Assembly (NCBI RefSeq): GCF_964031085.1
Contig: NZ_OZ035001.1
Location: 372,001 to 436,000 of the forward strand
Length of the DNA: 64,000 bases
Direction: 5' to 3'
Origin: Spiroplasma endosymbiont of Asaphidion curtum
GTDB lineage: Bacteria > Bacillota_I > Bacilli_A > Mycoplasmatales > Nriv7
Shown: piece by piece, positions 4,917 to 63,361 of the stretch
Layout of the letters: each line of letters opens with the position of its first letter
Numbering within the stretch: position 1 is the stretch's first letter
Made by a program: the position numbers and the translations under genes
The notes under the pieces: generated by a model
The model's input: only the letters and a program-made list of their open reading frames with translations
What the model was told of the DNA's origin: nothing
Databases searched by the model: none

Positions 4917-4940
4917 ATGAAATTTTGCAAATGAATAATA
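4917..4940 (+). pseudogene. Plectrovirus Zot-like assembly ATPase, 5' fragment cut by IS-A
   Basis: Only the first eight codons (KFCKWII after Met) remain before IS-A begins at 4940. The full gene survives in copy 2 at 36140-37123. The ribosome site GAGGTG is identical in both. The interruption removes all downstream phage genes from this segment, so phage segment 1 cannot assemble particles. Confidence 0.8.
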
Positions 4941-5019
4941 GACTTCTTGCATTACTTATTTATTAAACAAAATTCCTATAAAATATATTTAAAATAGAAA
5001 TTATAAGGAATTTAAGATT

Positions 5020-5843
5020 ATGAAATTTGATAAATTTAATTTTATTAATGATAAAGAATTATTACGATTAACTGGAATAAAGCAAAGTACTTTTAATAAA
5101 ATGTTAAATATTTTAAAAGAAGCTGAGTTAAAAAAGTTTAAAAGAGGTGGTAAAAATAATAAATTATCATTAGAAAATAGATTATTGATGACTTTATCAT
5201 ATTGACGAGAATATCGTACTTATTTTCATCTTGGTAAAAGTTTTGATATTAGTGAAGCTAGTTGTTATCGAAATATCAAGTGAATTGAAGATATTTTAAT
5301 CAAACATCCTGATTTTCAACAACTTGCTGGTAAAAAAGCATTAATAAATGATTATTTTAATGATAAAACAATTATTATTGATGCTACAGAAACACCCATT
5401 CAACGCCCAAAAAAAGACAAAAACAATCTTATTCAGGAAAAAAGAAAAAACACACTATTAAAACACAAGTAATTATTGAAAAAGAAAGCAAAATAATTAT
5501 TGCAACAAATTTTTCTCTCGGTAAAAAGCATGATTTTTGTTTATTTAAAGAATCAAAAATCCCAATTTTAAAAAATACTAAATTAATAGTTGATAATGGT
5601 TATCAAGGAATACAAAAAATTCATAGTAATGTTCTAATACCTAAGAAAAAAACAAAGAAAAACCCTTTAAATAAAGAACAAAAACATAATAATAAATTAA
5701 TTTCAAAAATGAGAATTATTATTGAAAATATTTTTGCTATTCTTAAAAAATTTAAAATTATTACTGAAAAATATCGTAATCGTAGAAAACGATTTAGTTT
5801 AAGATTTAATTTAATTGCTTCAATTTATAATTTGCAATTATAG
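5020..5843 (+). CDS. IS5-like DDE transposase by -1 frameshift (copy a)
   Basis: The first frame runs 5020-5472. It has an N-terminal helix-turn-helix domain (RLTGIKQSTFNKML) and the first catalytic Asp in IIIDATETPIQRP. The second half is read in the -1 frame after the A7 run at 5409-5415, where CCA AAA AAA slips to give RPKKRQKQSYSGKKKKH. The second catalytic region is LIVDNGYQG (Asp) and the Glu is in RIIIENIFA. The fused protein would be about 274 residues, the normal size for short IS5-family transposases. The split is present in every copy, so it is a feature of the element, not a sequencing error. Confidence 0.8.
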
Positions 5844-5870
5844 ATAACATAAAATATTTATTTAAAATTT

Positions 5871-6954
5871 TGCCAAATTGTAAAGTTAAGTGCAACTAAA
5901 TTATTTTTCTAACCAAATATTCGATTGGTGAAAGATAATTTAGTATTTTTCTTGGTCTTTGGTTTAAAGACAATATAAATTTATGAACTGCATTTTTAGT
6001 AGTATTTGAAAAATTAAATTTTTTAGGAAATTTTTCTCTAATTAAACCATTAGTATTTTCATTAGTACCTCTTTGTCAAGGCGAATACGCATTAGCAAAA
6101 TAAATTTTCACATTTAAATTTTTTTCAAGTTGTTGTCAATTAGAAAATTCTTTACCCCTATCAAATGTTATAGTCTTAACAAGATTATTTGGAAGAATTG
6201 ATAAATAATGGCTAATGTTTTCGTTAACAACTTTAGTAGTTCTATTTTCAACTAACATTGCTAAAGTAAATCTTGATGTTCTTTCAACTAAAGTTATTAA
6301 ACATGATTTACTTTTACCTCGTGATGATACTACAGTATCACCTTCTCAATGACCAACAGTTATACGATTATTAACATTAATATTTCGTTCTTTAATTGAT
6401 TTACCATTAAATTTACCGCGATTTTCTTGAGATTTTCGTTTCTTACCTTTTCTTCTTAAATTTTTATTAGTAACTTTTTCAAGTAATCCAGAATAAATTC
6501 AATTGTAAATTGTTTTAAAACTAATAATTCATTCTTTATGAAAATTTTTAATTCTGCCATAAATTTGTTCAGGCGATCAACCTAATAGTAATTTTTGTTG
6601 TATATATTTTACTAATTCTCTATTTTTAAACTTATGAAAATAAACATGTGATTGTTTTCTGTTTTCTGCTTTATTTTGTGCAATTAATGAAAAATAATGA
6701 TTACTATCTTTATTTCTATTGACTTCTCGAATAATAGTACTAATACTTCGATTAAGATTTTTAGCTATTTCACTAATTTTTACTTTAAACTTCAATTGAT
6801 TCTCAATATAAATTCTTTCATATATGCCAAGATGTTTGTAACCCATATAAAAACTCCTTGCTTTGTTTTTTCTAAAATAAACTTAGCATCATGAAATTTT
6901 TATATGAGATTTTTTGCAATTTTATTTACTTGCACTTACAAGTATAATTCAGCA
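5871..6954 (-). mobile_element. IS30-family element copy 1, inside IS-A copy a
   Basis: Imperfect terminal repeats: TGCTGAATTATACTTGTAAG at one end, TGCCAAATTGTAAAGTTAAG at the other, sharing TAAGTGCAA just inside. Complete, 1084 bp. It is inserted a few bases after the IS-A transposase stop codon. Copies 3 and 6 sit in the same place of other IS-A elements. Confidence 0.88.
5896..6846 (-). CDS. IS30-family transposase (copy 1)
   Basis: 316-residue transposase. The N-terminal IS30 helix-turn-helix (ISEIAKNLNRSISTIIREVNR) recognises the ends. The DDE catalytic core has Asp in HWEGDTVVS, Asp in ITFDRGKEFSNW, and Glu in RGTNENTNGLIREKFPK, a hallmark IS30 sequence. Several Trp are TGA. The ATG at 6846 has AAGGAG at the correct distance. 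It differs from other copies at residue ~86 (KYIQQ instead of KYVQQ). Open throughout and possibly active. Confidence 0.92.
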
Positions 6955-7112
6955 AATTAAATTTAAATAATAAAATAATTTTTTGTTGTGTCAAAATTTA
7001 CACATTTAATAAAATCCATAAGTATTAACCTAATAAAAGTTAGAAATTACTATATAGTATTTTTTATTTACAAATAATTTGTAATTATTTTAATAAGTAA
7101 TGCAAGAAGTCT

Positions 7113-24441: not shown

Positions 24442-24521
24442 AGACTTCTTGCATTACTTATTTATTAAACAAAATTCCTATAAAATATATTTAAAATAGA
24501 AATTATAAGGAATTTAAGATT

Positions 24522-25345
24522 ATGAAATTTGATAAATTTAATTTTATTAATGATAAAGAATTATTACGATTAACTGGAATAAAGCAAAGTACTTTTAATA
24601 AAATGTTAAATATTTTAAAAGAAGCTGAGTTAAAAAAGTTTAAAAGAGGTGGTAAAAATAATAAATTATCATTAGAAAATAGATTATTGATGACTTTATC
24701 ATATTGACGAGAATATCGTACTTATTTTCATCTTGGTAAAAGTTTTGATATTAGTGAAGCTAGTTGTTATCGAAATATCAAGTGAATTGAAGATATTTTA
24801 ATCAAACATCCTGATTTTCAACAACTTGCTGGTAAAAAAGCATTAATAAATGATTATTTTAATGATAAAACAATTATTATTGATGCTACAGAAACACCCA
24901 TTCAACGCCCAAAAAAAGACAAAAACAATCTTATTCAGGAAAAAAGAAAAAACACACTATTAAAACACAAGTAATTATTGAAAAAGAAAGCAAAATAATT
25001 ATTGCAACAAATTTTTCTCTCGGTAAAAAGCATGATTTTTGTTTATTTAAAGAATCAAAAATCCCAATTTTAAAAAATACTAAATTAATAGTTGATAATG
25101 GTTATCAAGGAATACAAAAAATTCATAGTAATGTTCTAATACCTAAGAAAAAAACAAAGAAAAACCCTTTAAATAAAGAACAAAAACATAATAATAAATT
25201 AATTTCAAAAATGAGAATTATTATTGAAAATATTTTTGCTATTCTTAAAAAATTTAAAATTATTACTGAAAAATATCGTAATCGTAGAAAACGATTTAGT
25301 TTAAGATTTAATTTAATTGCTTCAATTTATAATTTGCAATTATAG
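24522..25345 (+). CDS. IS5-like DDE transposase by -1 frameshift (copy e)
   Basis: Same organisation and intact A7 slippage run as copy a. IS30 copy 3 starts 36 bases after the stop, so the coding part is untouched, but the right end of the element is displaced. Confidence 0.82.
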
Positions 25346-25380
25346 ATAACATAAAATATTTATTTAAAATTAAATTTAAA

Positions 25381-26464
25381 TGCCAAATTGTAAAGTTAAG
25401 TGCAACTAAATTATTTTTCTAACCAAATATTCGATTGGTGAAAGATAATTTAGTATTTTTCTTGGTCTTTGGTTTAAAGACAATATAAATTTATGAACTG
25501 CATTTTTAGTAGTATTTGAAAAATTAAATTTTTTAGGAAATTTTTCTCTAATTAAACCATTAGTATTTTCATTAGTACCTCTTTGTCAAGGCGAATACGC
25601 ATTAGCAAAATAAATTTTCACATTTAAATTTTTTTCAAGTTGTTGTCAATTAGAAAATTCTTTACCCCTATCAAATGTTATAGTCTTAACAAGATTATTT
25701 GGAAGAATTGATAAATAATGGCTAATGTTTTCGTTAACAACTTTAGTAGTTCTATTTTCAACTAACATTGCTAAAGTAAATCTTGATGTTCTTTCAACTA
25801 AAGTTATTAAACATGATTTACTTTTACCTCGTGATGATACTACAGTATCACCTTCTCAATGACCAACAGTTATACGATTATTAACATTAATATTTCGTTC
25901 TTTAATTGATTTACCATTAAATTTACCGCGATTTTCTTGAGATTTTCGTTTCTTACCTTTTCTTCTTAAATTTTTATTAGTAACTTTTTCAAGTAATCCA
26001 GAATAAATTCAATTGTAAATTGTTTTAAAACTAATAATTCATTCTTTATGAAAATTTTTAATTCTGCCATAAATTTGTTCAGGCGATCAACCTAATAGTA
26101 ATTTTTGTTGTACATATTTTACTAATTCTCTATTTTTAAACTTATGAAAATAAACATGTGATTGTTTTCTGTTTTCTGCTTTATTTTGTGCAATTAATGA
26201 AAAATAATGATTACTATCTTTATTTCTATTGACTTCTCGAATAATAGTACTAATACTTCGATTAAGATTTTTAGCTATTTCACTAATTTTTACTTTAAAC
26301 TTCAATTGATTCTCAATATAAATTCTTTCATATATGCCAAGATGTTTGTAACCCATATAAAAACTCCTTGCTTTGTTTTTTCTAAAATAAACTTAGCATC
26401 ATGAAATTTTTATATGAGATTTTTTGCAATTTTATTTACTTGCACTTACAAGTATAATTCAGCA
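25381..26464 (-). mobile_element. IS30-family element copy 3, inside IS-A copy e
   Basis: Complete 1084 bp, orientation opposite to the host transposase, with about two duplicated A residues at the target. The insertion point is about 10 bases further right in IS-A than that of copy 1. Confidence 0.9.
25406..26356 (-). CDS. IS30-family transposase (copy 3)
   Basis: 316 residues, fully open with TGA as Trp, with the IS30 helix-turn-helix and DDE residues as in copy 2. Confidence 0.93.
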
Positions 26465-26614
26465 AATAATAAAATAATTTTTTGTTGTGTCAAAATTTAC
26501 ACATTTAATAAAATCCATAAGTATTAACCTAATAAAAGTTAGAAATTACTATATAGTATTTTTTATTTACAAATAATTTGTAATTATTTTAATAAGTAAT
26601 GCAAGAAGTCTAAT

Positions 26615-26714: not shown

Positions 26715-26717
26715 ATT

Positions 26718-27330
26718 ATACAAAAATTCTTAAAATCATTAGAAAAATGGCAAAACCGATTAAAAATTGAAAGGTATAGTAAAAGGCTGGCAAAAAGATA
26801 TTATTGGAAAATAAGGGTACTAATAATAATTTATTAGCAATTGATGCTACAGAAATTCCAATTGAAAGAATTAAAAAAAACTAAAATTATTATTTTCTGG
26901 TAAGAAAAGGCAACATTCATTAAAATCGCAAATAATTATTGATTTATTTAACAATAAAATTATTTCAGTAGATTTTTGTTATGGCAGTATTCATGATTAT
27001 AAGTTATTTTTAAAATCAAATACACTTATAAATCCAAAATTAGAATTAATTGTTGATTCAGGATATCAAGGTTTGCAAAATGTTCATAAAAATACATTAT
27101 TGCCAATTAAAAAGAGTAAAAATAATCCTTTAAATCCAGATAAAAAGGAATATAATAGCTTTTTAAGTAAAGTTAGAATTGCCATTGAACATGTTTTTGC
27201 TAGATTAAAAAGATTTAAAATACTAGTTTATCGTTATCGCAATAAGATTAGAAGATTTGGATTACGATTTAACTTAATTTCAGGAATATATAGTTTTGAA
27301 TTAAGCTAGTTATAGTTATGTACCAAGTTT
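26718..27330 (+). pseudogene. IS-B: second IS5-like transposase, 5' deleted and decayed
   Basis: The distal half of an IS5-like transposase distinct from IS-A. The first catalytic region is AIDATEIPIERIKK, then an A8 run with the same kind of -1 shift as in IS-A, then LLFSGKKRQHSLKSQIIID, LIVDSGYQGLQNVH and RIAIEHVFARLKRF. The stop is at 27307-27309. The element ends TAGTTATAGTTATGTACCAAG (27308-27328), nearly the right end of MITE-B. The 5' half contains many stops. It is the best candidate for the source family of MITE-B. Confidence 0.78.
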
Positions 27331-27333
27331 TAT

Positions 27334-27899
27334 GAAAAAACAGTCGCTTTGTTAACACAATGTAGTTCAGAATATAACGAATCACTAATCTTTGCTCAAG
27401 AAATACAATACATTAATAATGAAGTTCAAAAAATGATAATTGGAAAAAAGCAATTAGATAATATTATTAATATGATTAATTATCGGATTAAAGCATTAAA
27501 TATTAATTATACTCAACAAAACCAAAAGGAAATTTTTAATTTTTTACAACAATTAATTGCTATTGAAAATATTTCAACTATTAGAACATATTTAGAAAAT
27601 ACACCAATAAATTTAAATATTGATCAATCAATAGACTTGGTACATAACTATAACATTTTGTACCTACCAAACTATAAAATTCATTTTCGTCTTTGTATTT
27701 ATCTAACATTTGTACTTCACCTAGGAAATAATATTATCAAAATAGTAGATAAAATTAAAGGTTATGTACCAAGTCTAATGTATTTTTATATGCTTAATAA
27801 ATTAGCAAGAAATTGTGTTCAAGCAACAAGGTATTTAGATAGTTGAAGTTTATCACATAATAACAATAAAAAATCAGTTATGTATCAACGCGATAAGGT
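27334..27899 (+). pseudogene. Unknown gene, truncated by IS-B and IS30, with MITE-B inserted in frame
   Basis: The open frame starts within the IS-B border (YEKTVALLTQCSSEY) and continues with helical, Asn/Ile-rich sequence (KQLDNIINMINYRIKAL, FNFLQQLIAIENIS). At 27633 MITE-B enters. Because MITE plus 3-bp duplication is 147 bases and one MITE frame lacks stops, translation continues for 49 extra residues and back into the original frame (MYFYMLNKLARNCVQATRYLD). The frame ends in or just after the IS30 at 27903; in the reconstructed empty site it would end DKVLK. No family was recognised. Confidence 0.55.
27633..27776 (-). repeat. MITE-B copy 2 (complete, 144 bp)
   Basis: Ends AGACTTGGTACATAAC and GTTATGTACCAAGTCT, perfect AAT duplications (27630-27632 and 27777-27779). 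This is the clearest complete copy. The orientation given follows the putative transposase-start remnant. Read on the plus strand it carries a stop-free frame (DLVHNYNILYLPNYKIHF and onward). Confidence 0.9.
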
Positions 27900-38343: not shown

Positions 38344-38466
38344 ATGTTTATGAAAATATTTACCGTGCTAACTATTAGTTTCAATAACATTTTTACTATT
38401 CCACCAAACATTAACAACGAGAAAACGGCAGTGCAATTAGTTAGAAATAAAAGAAAAACTCAATAG
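38344..38466 (+). pseudogene. Plectrovirus exported protein, 5' fragment cut by IS-A
   Basis: AAAAAGGAGTGAT then ATG 38344. The first ~40 residues are a signal-peptide-like sequence (FMKIFTVLTISFNNIFTIPPN) followed by TAVQLVRNKRKTQ, and the frame then hits TAG at the IS-A end. In plectroviruses the next gene after the small membrane proteins is a large surface protein; the rest is missing here. Confidence 0.55.
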
Positions 38467-38544
38467 ACTTCTTGCATTACTTATTTATTAAACAAAATTC
38501 CTATAAAATATATTTAAAATAGAAATTATAAGGAATTTAAGATT

Positions 38545-39368
38545 ATGAAATTTGATAAATTTAATTTTATTAATGATAAAGAATTATTACGATTAACTGG
38601 AATAAAGCAAAGTACTTTTAATAAAATGTTAAATATTTTAAAAGAAGCTGAGTTAAAAAAGTTTAAAAGAGGTGGTAAAAATAATAAATTATCATTAGAA
38701 AATAGATTATTGATGACTTTATCATATTGACGAGAATATCGTACTTATTTTCATCTTGGTAAAAGTTTTGATATTAGTGAAGCTAGTTGTTATCGAAATA
38801 TCAAGTGAATTGAAGATATTTTAATCAAACATCCTGATTTTCAACAATTTGCTGGTAAAAAAGCATTAATAAATGATTATTTTAATGATAAAACAATTAT
38901 TATTGATGCTACAGAAACACCCATTCAACGCCCAAAAAAAGACAAAAACAATCTTATTCAGGAAAAAAGAAAAAACACACTATTAAAACACAAGTAATTA
39001 TTGAAAAAGAAAGCAAAATAATTATTGCAACAAATTTTTCTCTCGGTAAAAAGCATGATTTTTGTTTATTTAAAGAATCAAAAATCCCAATTTTAAAAAA
39101 TACTAAATTAATAGTTGATAATGGTTATCAAGGAATACAAAAAATTCATAGTAATGTTCTAATACCTAAGAAAAAAACAAAGAAAAACCCTTTAAATAAA
39201 GAACAAAAACATAATAATAAATTAATTTCAAAAATGAGAATTATTATTGAAAATATTTTTGCTATTCTTAAAAAATTTAAAATTATTACTGAAAAATATC
39301 GTAATCGTAGAAAACGATTTAGTTTAAGATTTAATTTAATTGCTTCAATTTATAATTTGCAATTATAG
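38545..39368 (+). CDS. IS5-like DDE transposase by -1 frameshift (copy g)
   Basis: As copy a, with an intact A7 run. One coding change: QQFAGKK in place of QQLAGKK. Confidence 0.82.
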
Positions 39369-39393
39369 ATAACATAAAATATTTATTTAAAAT

Positions 39394-40477
39394 TGCCAAA
39401 TTGTAAAGTTAAGTGCAACTAAATTATTTTTCTAACCAAATATTCGATTGGTGAAAGATAATTTAGTATTTTTCTTGGTCTTTGGTTTAAAGACAATATA
39501 AATTTATGAACTGCATTTTTAGTAGTATTTGAAAAATTAAATTTTTTAGGAAATTTTTCTCTAATTAAACCATTAGTATTTTCATTAGTACCTCTTTGTC
39601 AAGGCGAATACGCATTAGCAAAATAAATTTTCACATTTAAATTTTTTTCAAGTTGTTGTCAATTAGAAAATTCTTTACCCCTATCAAATGTTATAGTCTT
39701 AACAAGATTATTTGGAAGAATTGATAAATAATGGCTAATGTTTTCGTTAACAACTTTAGTAGTTCTATTTTCAACTAACATTGCTAAAGTAAATCTTGAT
39801 GTTCTTTCAACTAAAGTTATTAAACATGATTTACTTTTACCTCGTGATGATACTACAGTATCACCTTCTCAATGACCAACAGTTATACGATTATTAACAT
39901 TAATATTTCGTTCTTTAATTGATTTACCATTAAATTTACCGCGATTTTCTTGAGATTTTCGTTTCTTACCTTTTCTTCTTAAATTTTTATTAGTAACTTT
40001 TTCAAGTAATCCAGAATAAATTCAATTGTAAATTGTTTTAAAACTAATAATTCATTCTTTATGAAAATTTTTAATTCTGCCATAAATTTGTTCAGGCGAT
40101 CAACCTAATAGTAATTTTTGTTGTACATATTTTACTAATTCTCTATTTTTAAACTTATGAAAATAAACATGTGATTGTTTTCTGTTTTCTGCTTTATTTT
40201 GTGCAATTAATGAAAAATAATGATTACTATCTTTATTTCTATTGACTTCTCGAATAATAGTACTAATACTTCGATTAAGATTTTTAGCTATTTCACTAAT
40301 TTTTACTTTAAACTTCAATTGATTCTCAATATAAATTCTTTCATATATGCCAAGATGTTTGTAACCCATATAAAAACTCCTTGCTTTGTTTTTTCTAAAA
40401 TAAACTTAGCATCATGAAATTTTTATATGAGATTTTTTGCAATTTTATTTACTTGCACTTACAAGTATAATTCAGCA
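39394..40477 (-). mobile_element. IS30-family element copy 6, inside IS-A copy g
   Basis: Complete 1084 bp, minus orientation, the third case of IS30 sitting directly behind an IS-A transposase gene. Confidence 0.9.
39419..40369 (-). CDS. IS30-family transposase (copy 6)
   Basis: 316 residues, open, same motifs as copy 2. Confidence 0.93.
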
Positions 40478-40596
40478 AATAATAAAATAATTTTTTGTTG
40501 TGTCAAAATTTACACATTTAATAAAATCCATAAGTATTAACCTAATAAAAGTTAGAAATTACTATATAGTATTTTTTATTTACAAATAATTTGTAA

Positions 40597-41043
40597 TTAT
40601 TTTAATAAGTAATGCAAGAAGTCTAATATTTCAATCAGTGGCTCACGGTTACCAGGGGTACTTATAAGTCCGCCCATATTGATGGTTCTTAACGGATCAA
40701 GATGCTTTTCATCAATAAGTTCCTGTAACATTTTTTGAATATTATCAGAATAATTTTCATCTAAATTAATTTCTTTTTCAATAATATCAGTTTGGCTATC
40801 TGTATTTTTTGAAGATTGGGATTGTTGTTCATCTTGTGTTTTTGGAGTAGTTGATATGTCTTCGTTGTTTTGTCTTTTATTTCTAATTAATTTTTCTAAA
40901 TTATTTGTTTGTGAATAATTAAGCTCACTATTTAATAATTTATTTTTTGTTCTTTGTTTTCGATTAGGGGCAACTGCAATGACGGTTGATAGTGCATTAC
41001 CAGTTATTAAAATTGTTCCTAACAATCCTAAAAGTTTTTTCAT
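40597..41043 (-). pseudogene. Putative exported protein, 3' end replaced by IS-A
   Basis: ATG 41043 opens a signal-peptide-like segment (KKLLGLLGTILITGNALSTVIA), then a long hydrophilic, Gln/Ser/Asn-rich stretch containing NNLEKLIRNKRQNNE, and later DPLRTINMGGLISTPGNREP. From 40624 the frame is IS sequence and stops at 40597. The (L)(I/V)RNKR motif also appears in the phage exported fragment at 38344, so the two may belong to one class of spiroplasmal or viral surface protein. No named family recognised. Confidence 0.5.
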
Positions 41044-42612: not shown

Positions 42613-42852
42613 GTAAAAATATTAGTTAAAATTTAATAAAATTAATAATTTTTTATTGTGTAAAAATTCAATAATATGATAAAATGAAAACGAATAAAAT
42701 GACAATAACAAGAAAGGTATGGTTAGTTTAGTAATTAAATAATAGACTTCTTGCATTACTTATTAAAATAATTACAAATTATTTGTAAATAAAAAATACT
42801 ATATAGTAATTTCTAACTTTTATTAGGTTAATACTTATGGATTTTATTAAAT

Positions 42853-42972
42853 AGACTTCTTGCATAACCTATTAAAATAATAAAAATTTTAAATTTAACC
42901 ACTTTAAAATAAACATTTTTCTAAAATCTAAAATAATTTTGATAACAATTAACTAGGTTATGCAAGAAGTCT
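42853..42972. repeat. MITE-A, 120 bp, inside IS-A copy h
   Basis: Starts AGACTTCTTGCATAACCTA and ends with the complement of AGACTTCTTGCATAACCTAG, flanked by a perfect AAT duplication (42850-42852, 42973-42975). The body is AT-rich with no coding frame. Its ends share the first 13 bases with IS-A, then resemble MITE-B (ATAACCT), so it probably belongs to a third related transposon. Only copy in the window. Confidence 0.88.
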
Positions 42973-43046
42973 AATGTGTAAATTTTGACACAACAAAAAA
43001 TTATTTTATTATTTAAATTTAATTTTAAATAAATATTTTATGTTAT

Positions 43047-43870
43047 CTATAATTGCAAATTATAAATTGAAGCAATTAAATTAAATCTTAAACTAAATCG
43101 TTTTCTACGATTACGATATTTTTCAGTAATAATTTTAAATTTTTTAAGAATAGCAAAAATATTTTCAATAATAATTCTCATTTTTGAAATTAATTTATTA
43201 TTATGTTTTTGTTCTTTATTTAAAGGGTTTTTCTTTGTTTTTTTCTTAGGTATTAGAACATTACTATGAATTTTTTGTATTCCTTGATAACCATTATCAA
43301 CTATTAATTTAGTATTTTTTAAAATTGGGATTTTTGATTCTTTAAATAAACAAAAATCATGCTTTTTACCGAGAGAAAAATTTGTTGCAATAATTATTTT
43401 GCTTTCTTTTTCAATAATTACTTGTGTTTTAATAGTGTGTTTTTTCTTTTTTCCTGAATAAGATTGTTTTTGTCTTTTTTTGGGCGTTGAATGGGTGTTT
43501 CTGTAGCATCAATAATAATTGTTTTATCATTAAAATAATCATTTATTAATGCTTTTTTACCAGCAAGTTGTTGAAAATCAGGATGTTTGATTAAAATATC
43601 TTCAATTCACTTGATATTTCGATAACAACTAGCTTCACTAATATCAAAACTTTTACCAAGATGAAAATAAGTACGATATTCTCGTCAATATGATAAAGTC
43701 ATCAATAATCTATTTTCTAATGATAATTTATTATTTTTACCACCTCTTTTAAACTTTTTTAACTCAGCTTCTTTTAAAATATTTAACATTTTATTAAAAG
43801 TACTTTGCTTTATTCCAGTTAATCGTAATAATTCTTTATCATTAATAAAATTAAATTTATCAAATTTCAT
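43047..43870 (-). CDS. IS5-like DDE transposase by -1 frameshift (copy h)
   Basis: Same as copy a on the minus strand, A7 run intact. The MITE lies downstream of the stop and does not touch the coding part. Confidence 0.82.
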
Positions 43871-43991
43871 AATCTTAAATTCCTTATAATTTCTATTTTA
43901 AATATATTTTATAGGAATTTTGTTTAATAAATAAGTAATGCAAGAAGTCTAATATAATTAGCTGATTGTTTTACTTCTTCAAAGCAATACC

Positions 43992-60729: not shown

Positions 60730-61812
60730 AGACTTCTTGCATTACTTATTAAAATAATTACAAATTATTTGTAAATAAAAAATACTATATAGTAATTTCT
60801 AACTTTTATTAGGTTAATACTTATGGATTTTATTAAATGTGTAAATTTTGACACAACAAAAAATTATTTTATTATTTAAATTTAATTTTAAATAAATATT
60901 TTATGTTATCTATAATTGCAAATTATAAATTGAAGCAATTAAATTAAATCTTAAACTAAATCGTTTTCTACGATTACGATATTTTTCAGTAATAATTTTA
61001 AATTTTTTAAGAATAGCAAAAATATTTTCAATAATAATTCTCATTTTTGAAATTAATTTATTATTATGTTTTTGTTCTTTATTTAAAGGGTTTTTCTTTG
61101 TTTTTTTCTTAGGTATTAGAACATTACTATGAATTTTTTGTATTCCTTGATAACCATTATCAACTATTAATTTAGTATTTTTTAAAATTGGGATTTTTGA
61201 TTCTTTAAATAAACAAAAATCATGCTTTTTACCGAGAGAAAAATTTGTTGCAATAATTATTTTGCTTTCTTTTTCAATAATTACTTGTGTTTTAATAGTG
61301 TGTTTTTTCTTTTTTCCTGAATAAGATTGTTTTTGTCTTTTTTGGGCGTTGAATGGGTGTTTCTGTAGCATCAATAATAATTGTTTTATCATTAAAATAA
61401 TCATTTATTAATGCTTTTTTACCAGCAAGTTGTTGAAAATCAGGATGTTTGATTAAAATATCTTCAATTCACTTGATATTTCGATAACAACTAGCTTCAC
61501 TAATATCAAAACTTTTACCAAGATGAAAATAAGTACGATATTCTCGTCAATATGATAAAGTCATCAATAATCTATTTTCTAATGATAATTTATTATTTTT
61601 ACCACCTCTTTTAAACTTTTTTAACTCAGCTTCTTTTAAAATATTTAACATTTTATTAAAAGTACTTTGCTTTATTCCAGTTAATCGTAATAATTCTTTA
61701 TCATTAATAAAATTAAATTTATCAAATTTCATAATCTTAAATTCCTTATAATTTCTATTTTAAATATATTTTATAGGAATTTTGTTTAATAAATAAGTAA
61801 TGCAAGAAGTCT
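60730..61812 (-). mobile_element. IS-A copy i (1083 bp, A6 variant)
   Basis: Complete, with ACT duplications (60727-60729 and 61813-61815), inserted in the last Ser codon but two of the permease gene. One base shorter than other copies because the slippery A7 run is A6. Confidence 0.93.
60910..61732 (-). pseudogene. IS5-like transposase, A6 instead of A7 (copy i)
   Basis: Start at 61732 and all motifs present, but the slippage run has six A residues. A -1 shift no longer joins the halves; a +1 shift would be needed. The distal frame alone is open for 164 codons (QKRQKQSYSGKKKKH onward) and begins with a possible ATG. Probably inactive unless polymerase slippage restores the seventh A. Confidence 0.75.
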
Positions 61813-62067: not shown

Positions 62068-63150
62068 AGACTTCTTGCATTACTTATTAAAATAATTACA
62101 AATTATTTGTAAATAAAAAATACTATATAGTAATTTCTAACTTTTATTAGGTTAATACTTATGGATTTTATTAAATGTGTAAATTTTGACACAACAAAAA
62201 ATTATTTTATTATTTAAATTTAATTTTAAATAAATATTTTATGTTATCTATAATTGCAAATTATAAATTGAAGCAATTAAATTAAATCTTAAACTAAATC
62301 GTTTTCTACGATTACGATATTTTTCAGTAATAATTTTAAATTTTTTAAGAATAGCAAAAATATTTTCAATAATAATTCTCATTTTTGAAATTAATTTATT
62401 ATTATGTTTTTGTTCTTTATTTAAAGGGTTTTTCTTTGTTTTTTTCTTAGGTATTAGAACATTACTATGAATTTTTTGTATTCCTTGATAACCATTATCA
62501 ACTATTAATTTAGTATTTTTTAAAATTGGGATTTTTGATTCTTTAAATAAACAAAAATCATGCTTTTTGCCGAGAGAAAAATTTGTTGCAATAATTATTT
62601 TGCTTTCTTTTTCAATAATTACTTGTGTTTTAATAGTGTGTTTTTTCTTTTTTCCTGAATAAGATTGTTTTTGTCTTTTTTGGGCGTTGAATGGGTGTTT
62701 CTGTAGCATCAATAATAATTGTTTTATCATTAAAATAATCATTTATTAATGCTTTTTTACCAGCAAGTTGTTGAAAATCAGGATGTTTGATTAAAATATC
62801 TTCAATTCACTTGATATTTCGATAACAACTAGCTTCACTAATATCAAAACTTTTACCAAGATGAAAATAAGTACGATATTCTCGTCAATATGATAAAGTC
62901 ATCAATAATCTATTTTCTAATGATAATTTATTATTTTTACCACCTCTTTTAAACTTTTTTAACTCAGCTTCTTTTAAAATATTTAACATTTTATTAAAAG
63001 TACTTTGCTTTATTCCAGTTAATCGTAATAATTCTTTATCATTAATAAAATTAAATTTATCAAATTTCATAATCTTAAATTCCTTATAATTTCTATTTTA
63101 AATATATTTTATAGGAATTTTGTTTAATAAATAAGTAATGCAAGAAGTCT
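62068..63150 (-). mobile_element. IS-A copy j (1083 bp, A6 variant)
   Basis: Complete, ATT duplications (62065-62067, 63151-63153), inserted in the permease gene 250 bases from copy i and sharing its A6 run. Confidence 0.93.
62248..63070 (-). pseudogene. IS5-like transposase, A6 instead of A7 (copy j)
   Basis: Same as copy i, with one silent-looking base change near 62569. Shared A6 suggests that i and j descend from one another. Confidence 0.75.
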
Positions 63151-63217: not shown

Positions 63218-63361
63218 AGACTTGGTACATAACTATAACATTTTGCACCTATCAAACTATAAAATTCACTTTCATCTTTATATTTATCTAATATTTGTGC
63301 TTCATCTAGAAAATAATATTATCAAAATAGTAGATAAAATTGAGGGTTATGTACCAAGTCT
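63218..63361 (-). repeat. MITE-B copy 5 (complete, 144 bp)
   Basis: Both ends intact (AGACTTGGTACATAAC / GTTATGTACCAAGTCT). The flanking triplets AAT and ATT differ, so the flanks have been rearranged. The plus strand again has a stop-free frame (NILHLSNYKIHFHLYIYL). Confidence 0.88.

What the first reader, a model, noticed from the sequence alone, without database searches (positions are those of the whole stretch)
42853..42972. A third, 120-bp MITE (MITE-A) nested in IS-A with perfect duplication
Its ends AGACTTCTTGCATAACCTA combine the IS-A start (AGACTTCTTGCAT) and the MITE-B continuation (ATAACCT). This suggests a family of cross-related terminal repeats served by more than one transposase. 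It is flanked by AAT on both sides.
Basis: seen in the sequence. Interest (0 to 1): 0.5.

Follow-up and report, generated by a model that had tools for sequence, protein, structure and literature searches.

The report
Small hitchhiking DNA element in Spiroplasma
The 120-base repeat is a real, recently active miniature transposon that carries no gene of its own and probably rides on the cutting enzyme of a larger jumping element; it is a new example of a familiar kind, though its end signal turns up in very distant bacteria.

Summary
Confirmed: a 120-bp element (42853-42972) with perfect 19-bp terminal inverted repeats (TIRs), AGACTTCTTGCATAACCTA, sits inside an IS-A copy, flanked by AAT/AAT. 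The genome (1.31 Mb, one contig) holds 15 copies: 12 identical, and 12 of 15 with an identical 3-bp ANT duplication. Four of 15 lie inside IS-A, and the matching empty sites exist in other IS-A copies. It is therefore a recently mobile MITE. IS-A is an IS5-family element with ISL2-like traits (HTH_Tnp_4 plus DDE_Tnp_4, two overlapping ORFs, ANT duplications) and 315 exact ends in the genome. MITE-A's ends do look like a blend of IS-A and MITE-B ends, but more simply they keep the group's common TIR. The same 19-mer ends a ~1075-bp IS in Spiroplasma phoeniceum, a 904-bp IS in a Rickettsia (transposase 60% identical to IS-A) and short transposase-less elements in Campylobacterota and Proteobacteria. 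No element with MITE-A's own ends and a transposase was found in this genome, only a ~50-bp relic end. IS-A's transposase acting in trans is the likeliest mover; service by more than one transposase is unproven. New member of a known kind.

The parts
42853..42972 (+). MITE-A, 120 bp, no transposase
42853..42871 (+). left terminal inverted repeat AGACTTCTTGCATAACCTA
42954..42972 (-). right terminal inverted repeat, perfect over 19 bp
42850..42852 (.). target-site duplication AAT, left
42973..42975 (.). target-site duplication AAT, right
42744..43950 (-). host IS-A copy (IS5 family, ISL2-like), transposase on - strand; MITE-A lies downstream of its transposase frames
43418..43870 (-). IS-A orfA (HTH_Tnp_4) of the host copy
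43050..43490 (-). IS-A orfB match (catalytic part) of the host copy, offset frame
   Evidence: G000:C1:415050-415490
60730..61812 (-). uninterrupted IS-A copy, 1083 bp, ACT/ACT duplication, reference for IS-A
62068..63150 (-). second uninterrupted IS-A copy, 1083 bp, ATT/ATT duplication
27633..27776 (.). MITE-B, 144 bp, ends AGACTTGGTACATAAC (comparison element)
63218..63361 (.). MITE-B, second copy
26715..27330 (+). IS-B fragment: catalytic ORF and one end (AAACTTGGTACATAAC)

Best explanation
MITE-A is a non-autonomous miniature inverted-repeat element of the IS5/ISL2-like group. Shown: its 19-bp TIRs, 3-bp ANT duplications, 15 dispersed near-identical copies, and insertion into IS-A copies whose empty sites are known. 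Inferred: a DDE transposase supplied in trans binds the paired TIRs, moves the 120-bp unit into an ANT target and leaves the 3-bp duplication. Inferred: the enzyme is the one made by IS-A, which is abundant, recently active and has the closest ends in the genome. Also inferred: MITE-A began as a relic of a sister IS with AACCTA ends (the S. phoeniceum type) that has since been lost here apart from one ~50-bp end.
For: 15 full copies, 12 of 15 identical over 120 bp. Identical ANT flanks in 12 of 15; IS-A ends in the window also all abut ANT. Four of 15 copies lie inside IS-A and one more beside a ~50-bp IS-A-like relic end, so at least these moved after IS-A had spread. Of 341 AGACTTCTTGC ends in the genome, 315 are exact IS-A 21-mers, 24 are MITE-A and one is the relic; one is not accounted for. 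No listed transposase match is clearly nearer the S. phoeniceum type than IS-A copies are (150 of 413 candidates scored, list cut). IS-A and the S. phoeniceum IS are 85% identical in DNA over 1098 columns.
Against: MITE-A's TIR differs from IS-A's at positions 14 and 17 in all of its exact ends, while 315 IS-A ends never show the MITE-A form, so cross-recognition is assumed, not seen. Beyond the TIR, homology of MITE-A to any IS end is weak: lowest p 0.0075 for the left end (G002) and 0.042 for the right end (Rickettsia), uncorrected for 26 comparisons. IS-B also has an apparently intact copy (L189) and ends only 3 of 18 positions away.
Confidence: 0.65

Rival explanations
1. MITE-A was moved by its true parent, an ISL2-like IS with identical AACCTA ends that was later lost from this genome; IS-A has no part in it.
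For: Such an IS exists in S. phoeniceum CP110830.1 (~1075 bp) and, truncated, in another Spiroplasma, G002. A ~50-bp right-end relic with ACAACCT survives here: 86.8% over 53 to the S. phoeniceum end versus 84% over 50 to IS-A. MITE-A has 0 of 18 TIR mismatches to it.
Against: No coding remnant of it was found among the listed transposase matches. Twelve identical copies, some inside IS-A, mean the mover was present very recently.
Confidence: 0.25
2. IS-B, the parent of MITE-B, mobilises MITE-A as well, so MITE-A is served by two transposases.
For: IS-B left end AGACTTGGTACATAACCT differs from MITE-A at 3 of 18 positions and shares ATAACCT; one copy has open orfA and orfB; MITE-B shows the same AAT duplication.
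Against: The differences lie in the CTTGC block, which is kept in most other relatives read; the subterminal sequence is not significantly alike.
Confidence: 0.08
3. The palindrome is a chance or static structure such as a regulatory hairpin, not mobile.
For: Strong hairpin; two copies lie just upstream of greA and pth.
Against: Dispersed identical copies, target duplications and known empty sites.
Confidence: 0.01

Closest known systems
ISCaa3 / ISCaa2 group, ISL2 group of the IS5 family (Amoebophilus asiaticus and other intracellular bacteria; PMC3196728, section 7 and passages read)
   Same: IS-A has an IS5-type HTH plus DDE transposase in two overlapping ORFs, is of ~0.9-1.1 kb like them, and recurs in intracellular bacteria with cyanobacterial relatives.
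   Different: The passages read describe no MITE and print no TIR sequence to compare; IS-A is in a mollicute with TGA=Trp.
Cardinium IS982-derived MITE (PMC9769881; part 1 of 3 read)
   Same: A MITE in an arthropod symbiont genome, thought to be maintained in trans by an IS and inserted in other mobile elements.
   Different: IS982 family, with the parental IS present; here IS5/ISL2-like and the same-ended parent is not found.
S. phoeniceum IS with AGACTTCTTGCATAACCTA ends (CP110830.1, unnamed)
   Same: Identical 19-bp TIR, ANT duplications, transposase about 86% identical to IS-A's catalytic part.
   Different: Full-length element with transposase; its interior is not clearly shared with MITE-A.

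Membership tests
MITE | short element bounded by TIRs and without a transposase gene | tested here: met
   120 bp, 19-bp perfect TIRs
MITE | target-site duplication of fixed length | tested here: met
   3-bp ANT in 12 of 15 copies; empty sites
MITE | several dispersed copies | tested here: met
   15 copies
MITE | autonomous element with matching ends in the same genome | tested here: inconclusive
   IS-A matches 16 of 18 TIR positions; an identical-ended IS was seen only elsewhere
MITE | transposition in trans demonstrated | not testable with these tools
   needs an assay
IS5 family, ISL2 group (for the partner IS-A) | IS5-type HTH and DDE transposase | tested here: met
   HTH_Tnp_4 67.6 bits, DDE_Tnp_4 81.7 bits, both above Pfam cut-off; NF033581 is the best NCBIfam hit but each half alone is below its 140-bit cut-off
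IS5 family, ISL2 group (for the partner IS-A) | 3-bp ANT target duplication (group trait recalled, not from a call) | tested here: met
   ACT/ACT and ATT/ATT at two intact copies; ANT beside all IS-A ends listed
IS5 family, ISL2 group (for the partner IS-A) | placement within the ISL2 clade by a tree against ISfinder references | not tested
   no reference set at hand

The most novel reading that the evidence does not exclude
AGACTTCTTGCATAACCT with an ANT target is a shared end signal kept across ISL2-like transposases in at least three phyla, so MITEs bearing it can be adopted by whichever family member is resident and can spread and persist after losing their parent. MITE-A would be a case of such adoption, by IS-A and possibly IS-B.
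Probability: 0.2. Interest if true: 0.5.

Novelty: new member of a known kind. Interest (0 to 1): 0.3.

Why it matters
Searches of the held open-access library listed no paper describing a MITE in Spiroplasma. The locus gives clean material (identical copies, known empty sites, an abundant candidate transposase, a same-ended IS in a sister species) to ask whether an orphaned MITE can be taken over by a related transposase, and how TIR recognition evolves. The end sequence is also a usable probe for ISL2-like MITEs in insect symbionts and Campylobacterota.

Tried and rejected
A mosaic origin of MITE-A from IS-A and IS-B: anchored alignments beyond the TIR gave no convincing match to either, so only the shared TIR is claimed. 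Carriage by viruses: no exact match to the TIR 19-mer or to a 42-base interior stretch in viral contigs. Plasmids: no MITE-A match. Matches to the MITE interior in G001 and G002 (27 bp each) lie in AT-rich surroundings without the ends and were not counted as copies. No complete MITE-A was listed in the S. phoeniceum, Bradysia Rickettsia, Fukatsuia, Sulfurimonas or Neisseriaceae genomes; only parts matched (list cut). Promoter and terminator scans of the element: two weak promoter-like matches against 0.9 expected, no terminator. The TIR letters were not found in a transposon paper: of 26 papers holding one of the two 11-mers, the 20 listed have unrelated titles.

Full report
The observation. 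At 42853-42972 lies a 120-bp unit with perfect 19-bp inverted ends, AGACTTCTTGCATAACCTA, flanked by AAT on both sides. It sits inside an IS-A copy at 42744-43950. Other IS-A copies hold the uninterrupted site, so this is an insertion with a 3-bp duplication, not a chance palindrome. The window's matches to the end sequence (20 at up to 3 mismatches) are far above the shuffled expectation of 0.00.

Copies in the genome. The window's genome (G000, 1.31 Mb, one contig) holds 15 full-length copies. Twelve of 15 are identical; the other 3 share C4T and G117A, paired positions of the two TIRs, so both ends changed together. Flanking triplets are identical (AAT or ATT) in 12 of 15. The remaining three are ATT/AAT (one) and AAT/ATT (two copies with the same flanks, so probably one site duplicated); the two triplets are reverse complements, as recombination between inverted copies could give (inference). 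Four of 15 copies lie inside IS-A at different positions (L001, L008, L010, L012). One lies at the end of an ISLre2-like ORF (L011) and one beside IS30 sequence (L009).

The partner. IS-A is 1083 bp in two uninterrupted copies, with ends AGACTTCTTGCATTACTTATT and ANT duplications. Its two overlapping frames carry HTH_Tnp_4 and DDE_Tnp_4 and match the IS5 model NF033581 best, each half below that model's whole-protein cut-off. Of 341 AGACTTCTTGC ends in the genome, 315 are exact IS-A 21-mers, 24 are MITE-A ends and one is a relic end at 839779; one is unassigned. So no intact element with MITE-A's own ends plus a transposase was seen here. The relic is a ~50-bp right end beside a MITE-A copy, 86.8% identical over 53 columns to the S. 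phoeniceum IS end and 84% over 50 to IS-A.

Relatives. Another Spiroplasma, G003, has one 116-bp relative at 81%, so the family is not confined to this genome. G002 has IS-A-like sequence that starts with exactly MITE-A's 19-mer. In 78 of 119 an inverted partner lies 40-1300 bp away (up to 3 mismatches); 69 of 119 have ANT on both sides and 55 of 119 have identical triplets; the same letters read backwards gave 0 pairs. By group, paired of held: S. phoeniceum 30 of 40, Rickettsiales 24 of 30, Campylobacterota 18 of 30, Neisseriaceae 5 of 12, Gammaproteobacteria 1 of 5, other 0 of 2 (groups assigned by hand from the titles). In S. phoeniceum the pairs span 1029-1235 bp; in a Rickettsia of Bradysia they are mostly 904-bp ISs whose transposase halves are 60% identical to IS-A's; in Campylobacterota, Neisseriaceae and Legionellaceae they are 46-292 bp, and tblastn with both transposases found no hit in those loci. 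Plasmid-borne relatives in Legionella, Geminocystis, Rhabdochlamydia and two Spiroplasma have variants of the same end beside ANT (in Rhabdochlamydia and Fukatsuia only one end was recognisable, the Fukatsuia one poorly).

The 'combined' ends. IS-B (906-908 bp; ends AGACTTGGTACATAACCT and AGACTTGGTACATAACTATAAC) is the evident parent of the 144-bp MITE-B, whose end sequence occurs 284 times in the genome at up to 1 mismatch (IS-B ends are included). Because the same 19-mer is the IS end in S. phoeniceum and one end of the IS in Rickettsia, the plainer account is that MITE-A keeps the common form and the other two have drifted. Alignments beyond the TIR do not establish which IS it came from.

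Mechanism. Shown: discrete ends, fixed-length duplication, recent copies, insertion into IS-A. Inferred: movement in trans by a DDE transposase, most likely IS-A's. Not shown: which enzyme. Consequences seen: one copy lies just upstream of greA and one just upstream of pth, and one splits a long ORF of unknown function.

Known context. An ISL2-group IS5 element with two ORFs and a predicted -1 frameshift, related to elements of other intracellular bacteria and of cyanobacteria, is described in Amoebophilus (PMC3196728, section 7). A Cardinium MITE tied to IS982 is described in PMC9769881 (part 1 of 3). A Spiroplasma and its co-resident Rickettsia were reported not to share ISs directly (PMC13375240, passages), which fits shared ends with transposases only 60% identical. 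Full-text searches for Spiroplasma with MITE terms listed no Spiroplasma MITE paper by title or abstract start (6 papers; 10 of 93 listed). The review PMC10969869 has no occurrence of the word Spiroplasma in its main text.

Noticed in passing
27633-27776, 63218-63361; L188, L189: MITE-B (144 bp) is extremely abundant: 284 matches to its end 16-mer in 1.31 Mb. Its parent IS-B (906-908 bp) has few copies among those read, of which L189 has both frames open.
   Followed up: partly
4940-7112, 24442-26611, 38465-40624, 31339 onward: Several IS-A copies carry an IS30-family element at what looks like the same internal position, suggesting a nested unit that spreads as a whole or a preferred site.
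   Followed up: no
43418-43870 versus 60730-61812: IS-A copies differ in the length of the A run where the two transposase frames overlap; at least one genomic copy (L178) reads as one long open frame (283 aa, with in-frame TGA read as Trp).
   Followed up: partly
L042 6-51, L102 1603-1648, L112 1544-1589 (Sulfurimonas): 46-bp elements made of two perfect 19-bp TIRs around an 8-bp spacer, flanked by ANT: possibly among the smallest MITEs.
   Followed up: partly
L013, L014, L015 (G000:C1:1148457, 88625, 82721): Three MITE-A copies carry a matched change at paired TIR positions 4 and 117, as if one end had templated repair of the other.
   Followed up: no
L007 1501-1620; L013 1501-1620: MITE-A sits a few tens of bases upstream of greA and pth start codons, where it could alter expression.
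   Followed up: partly
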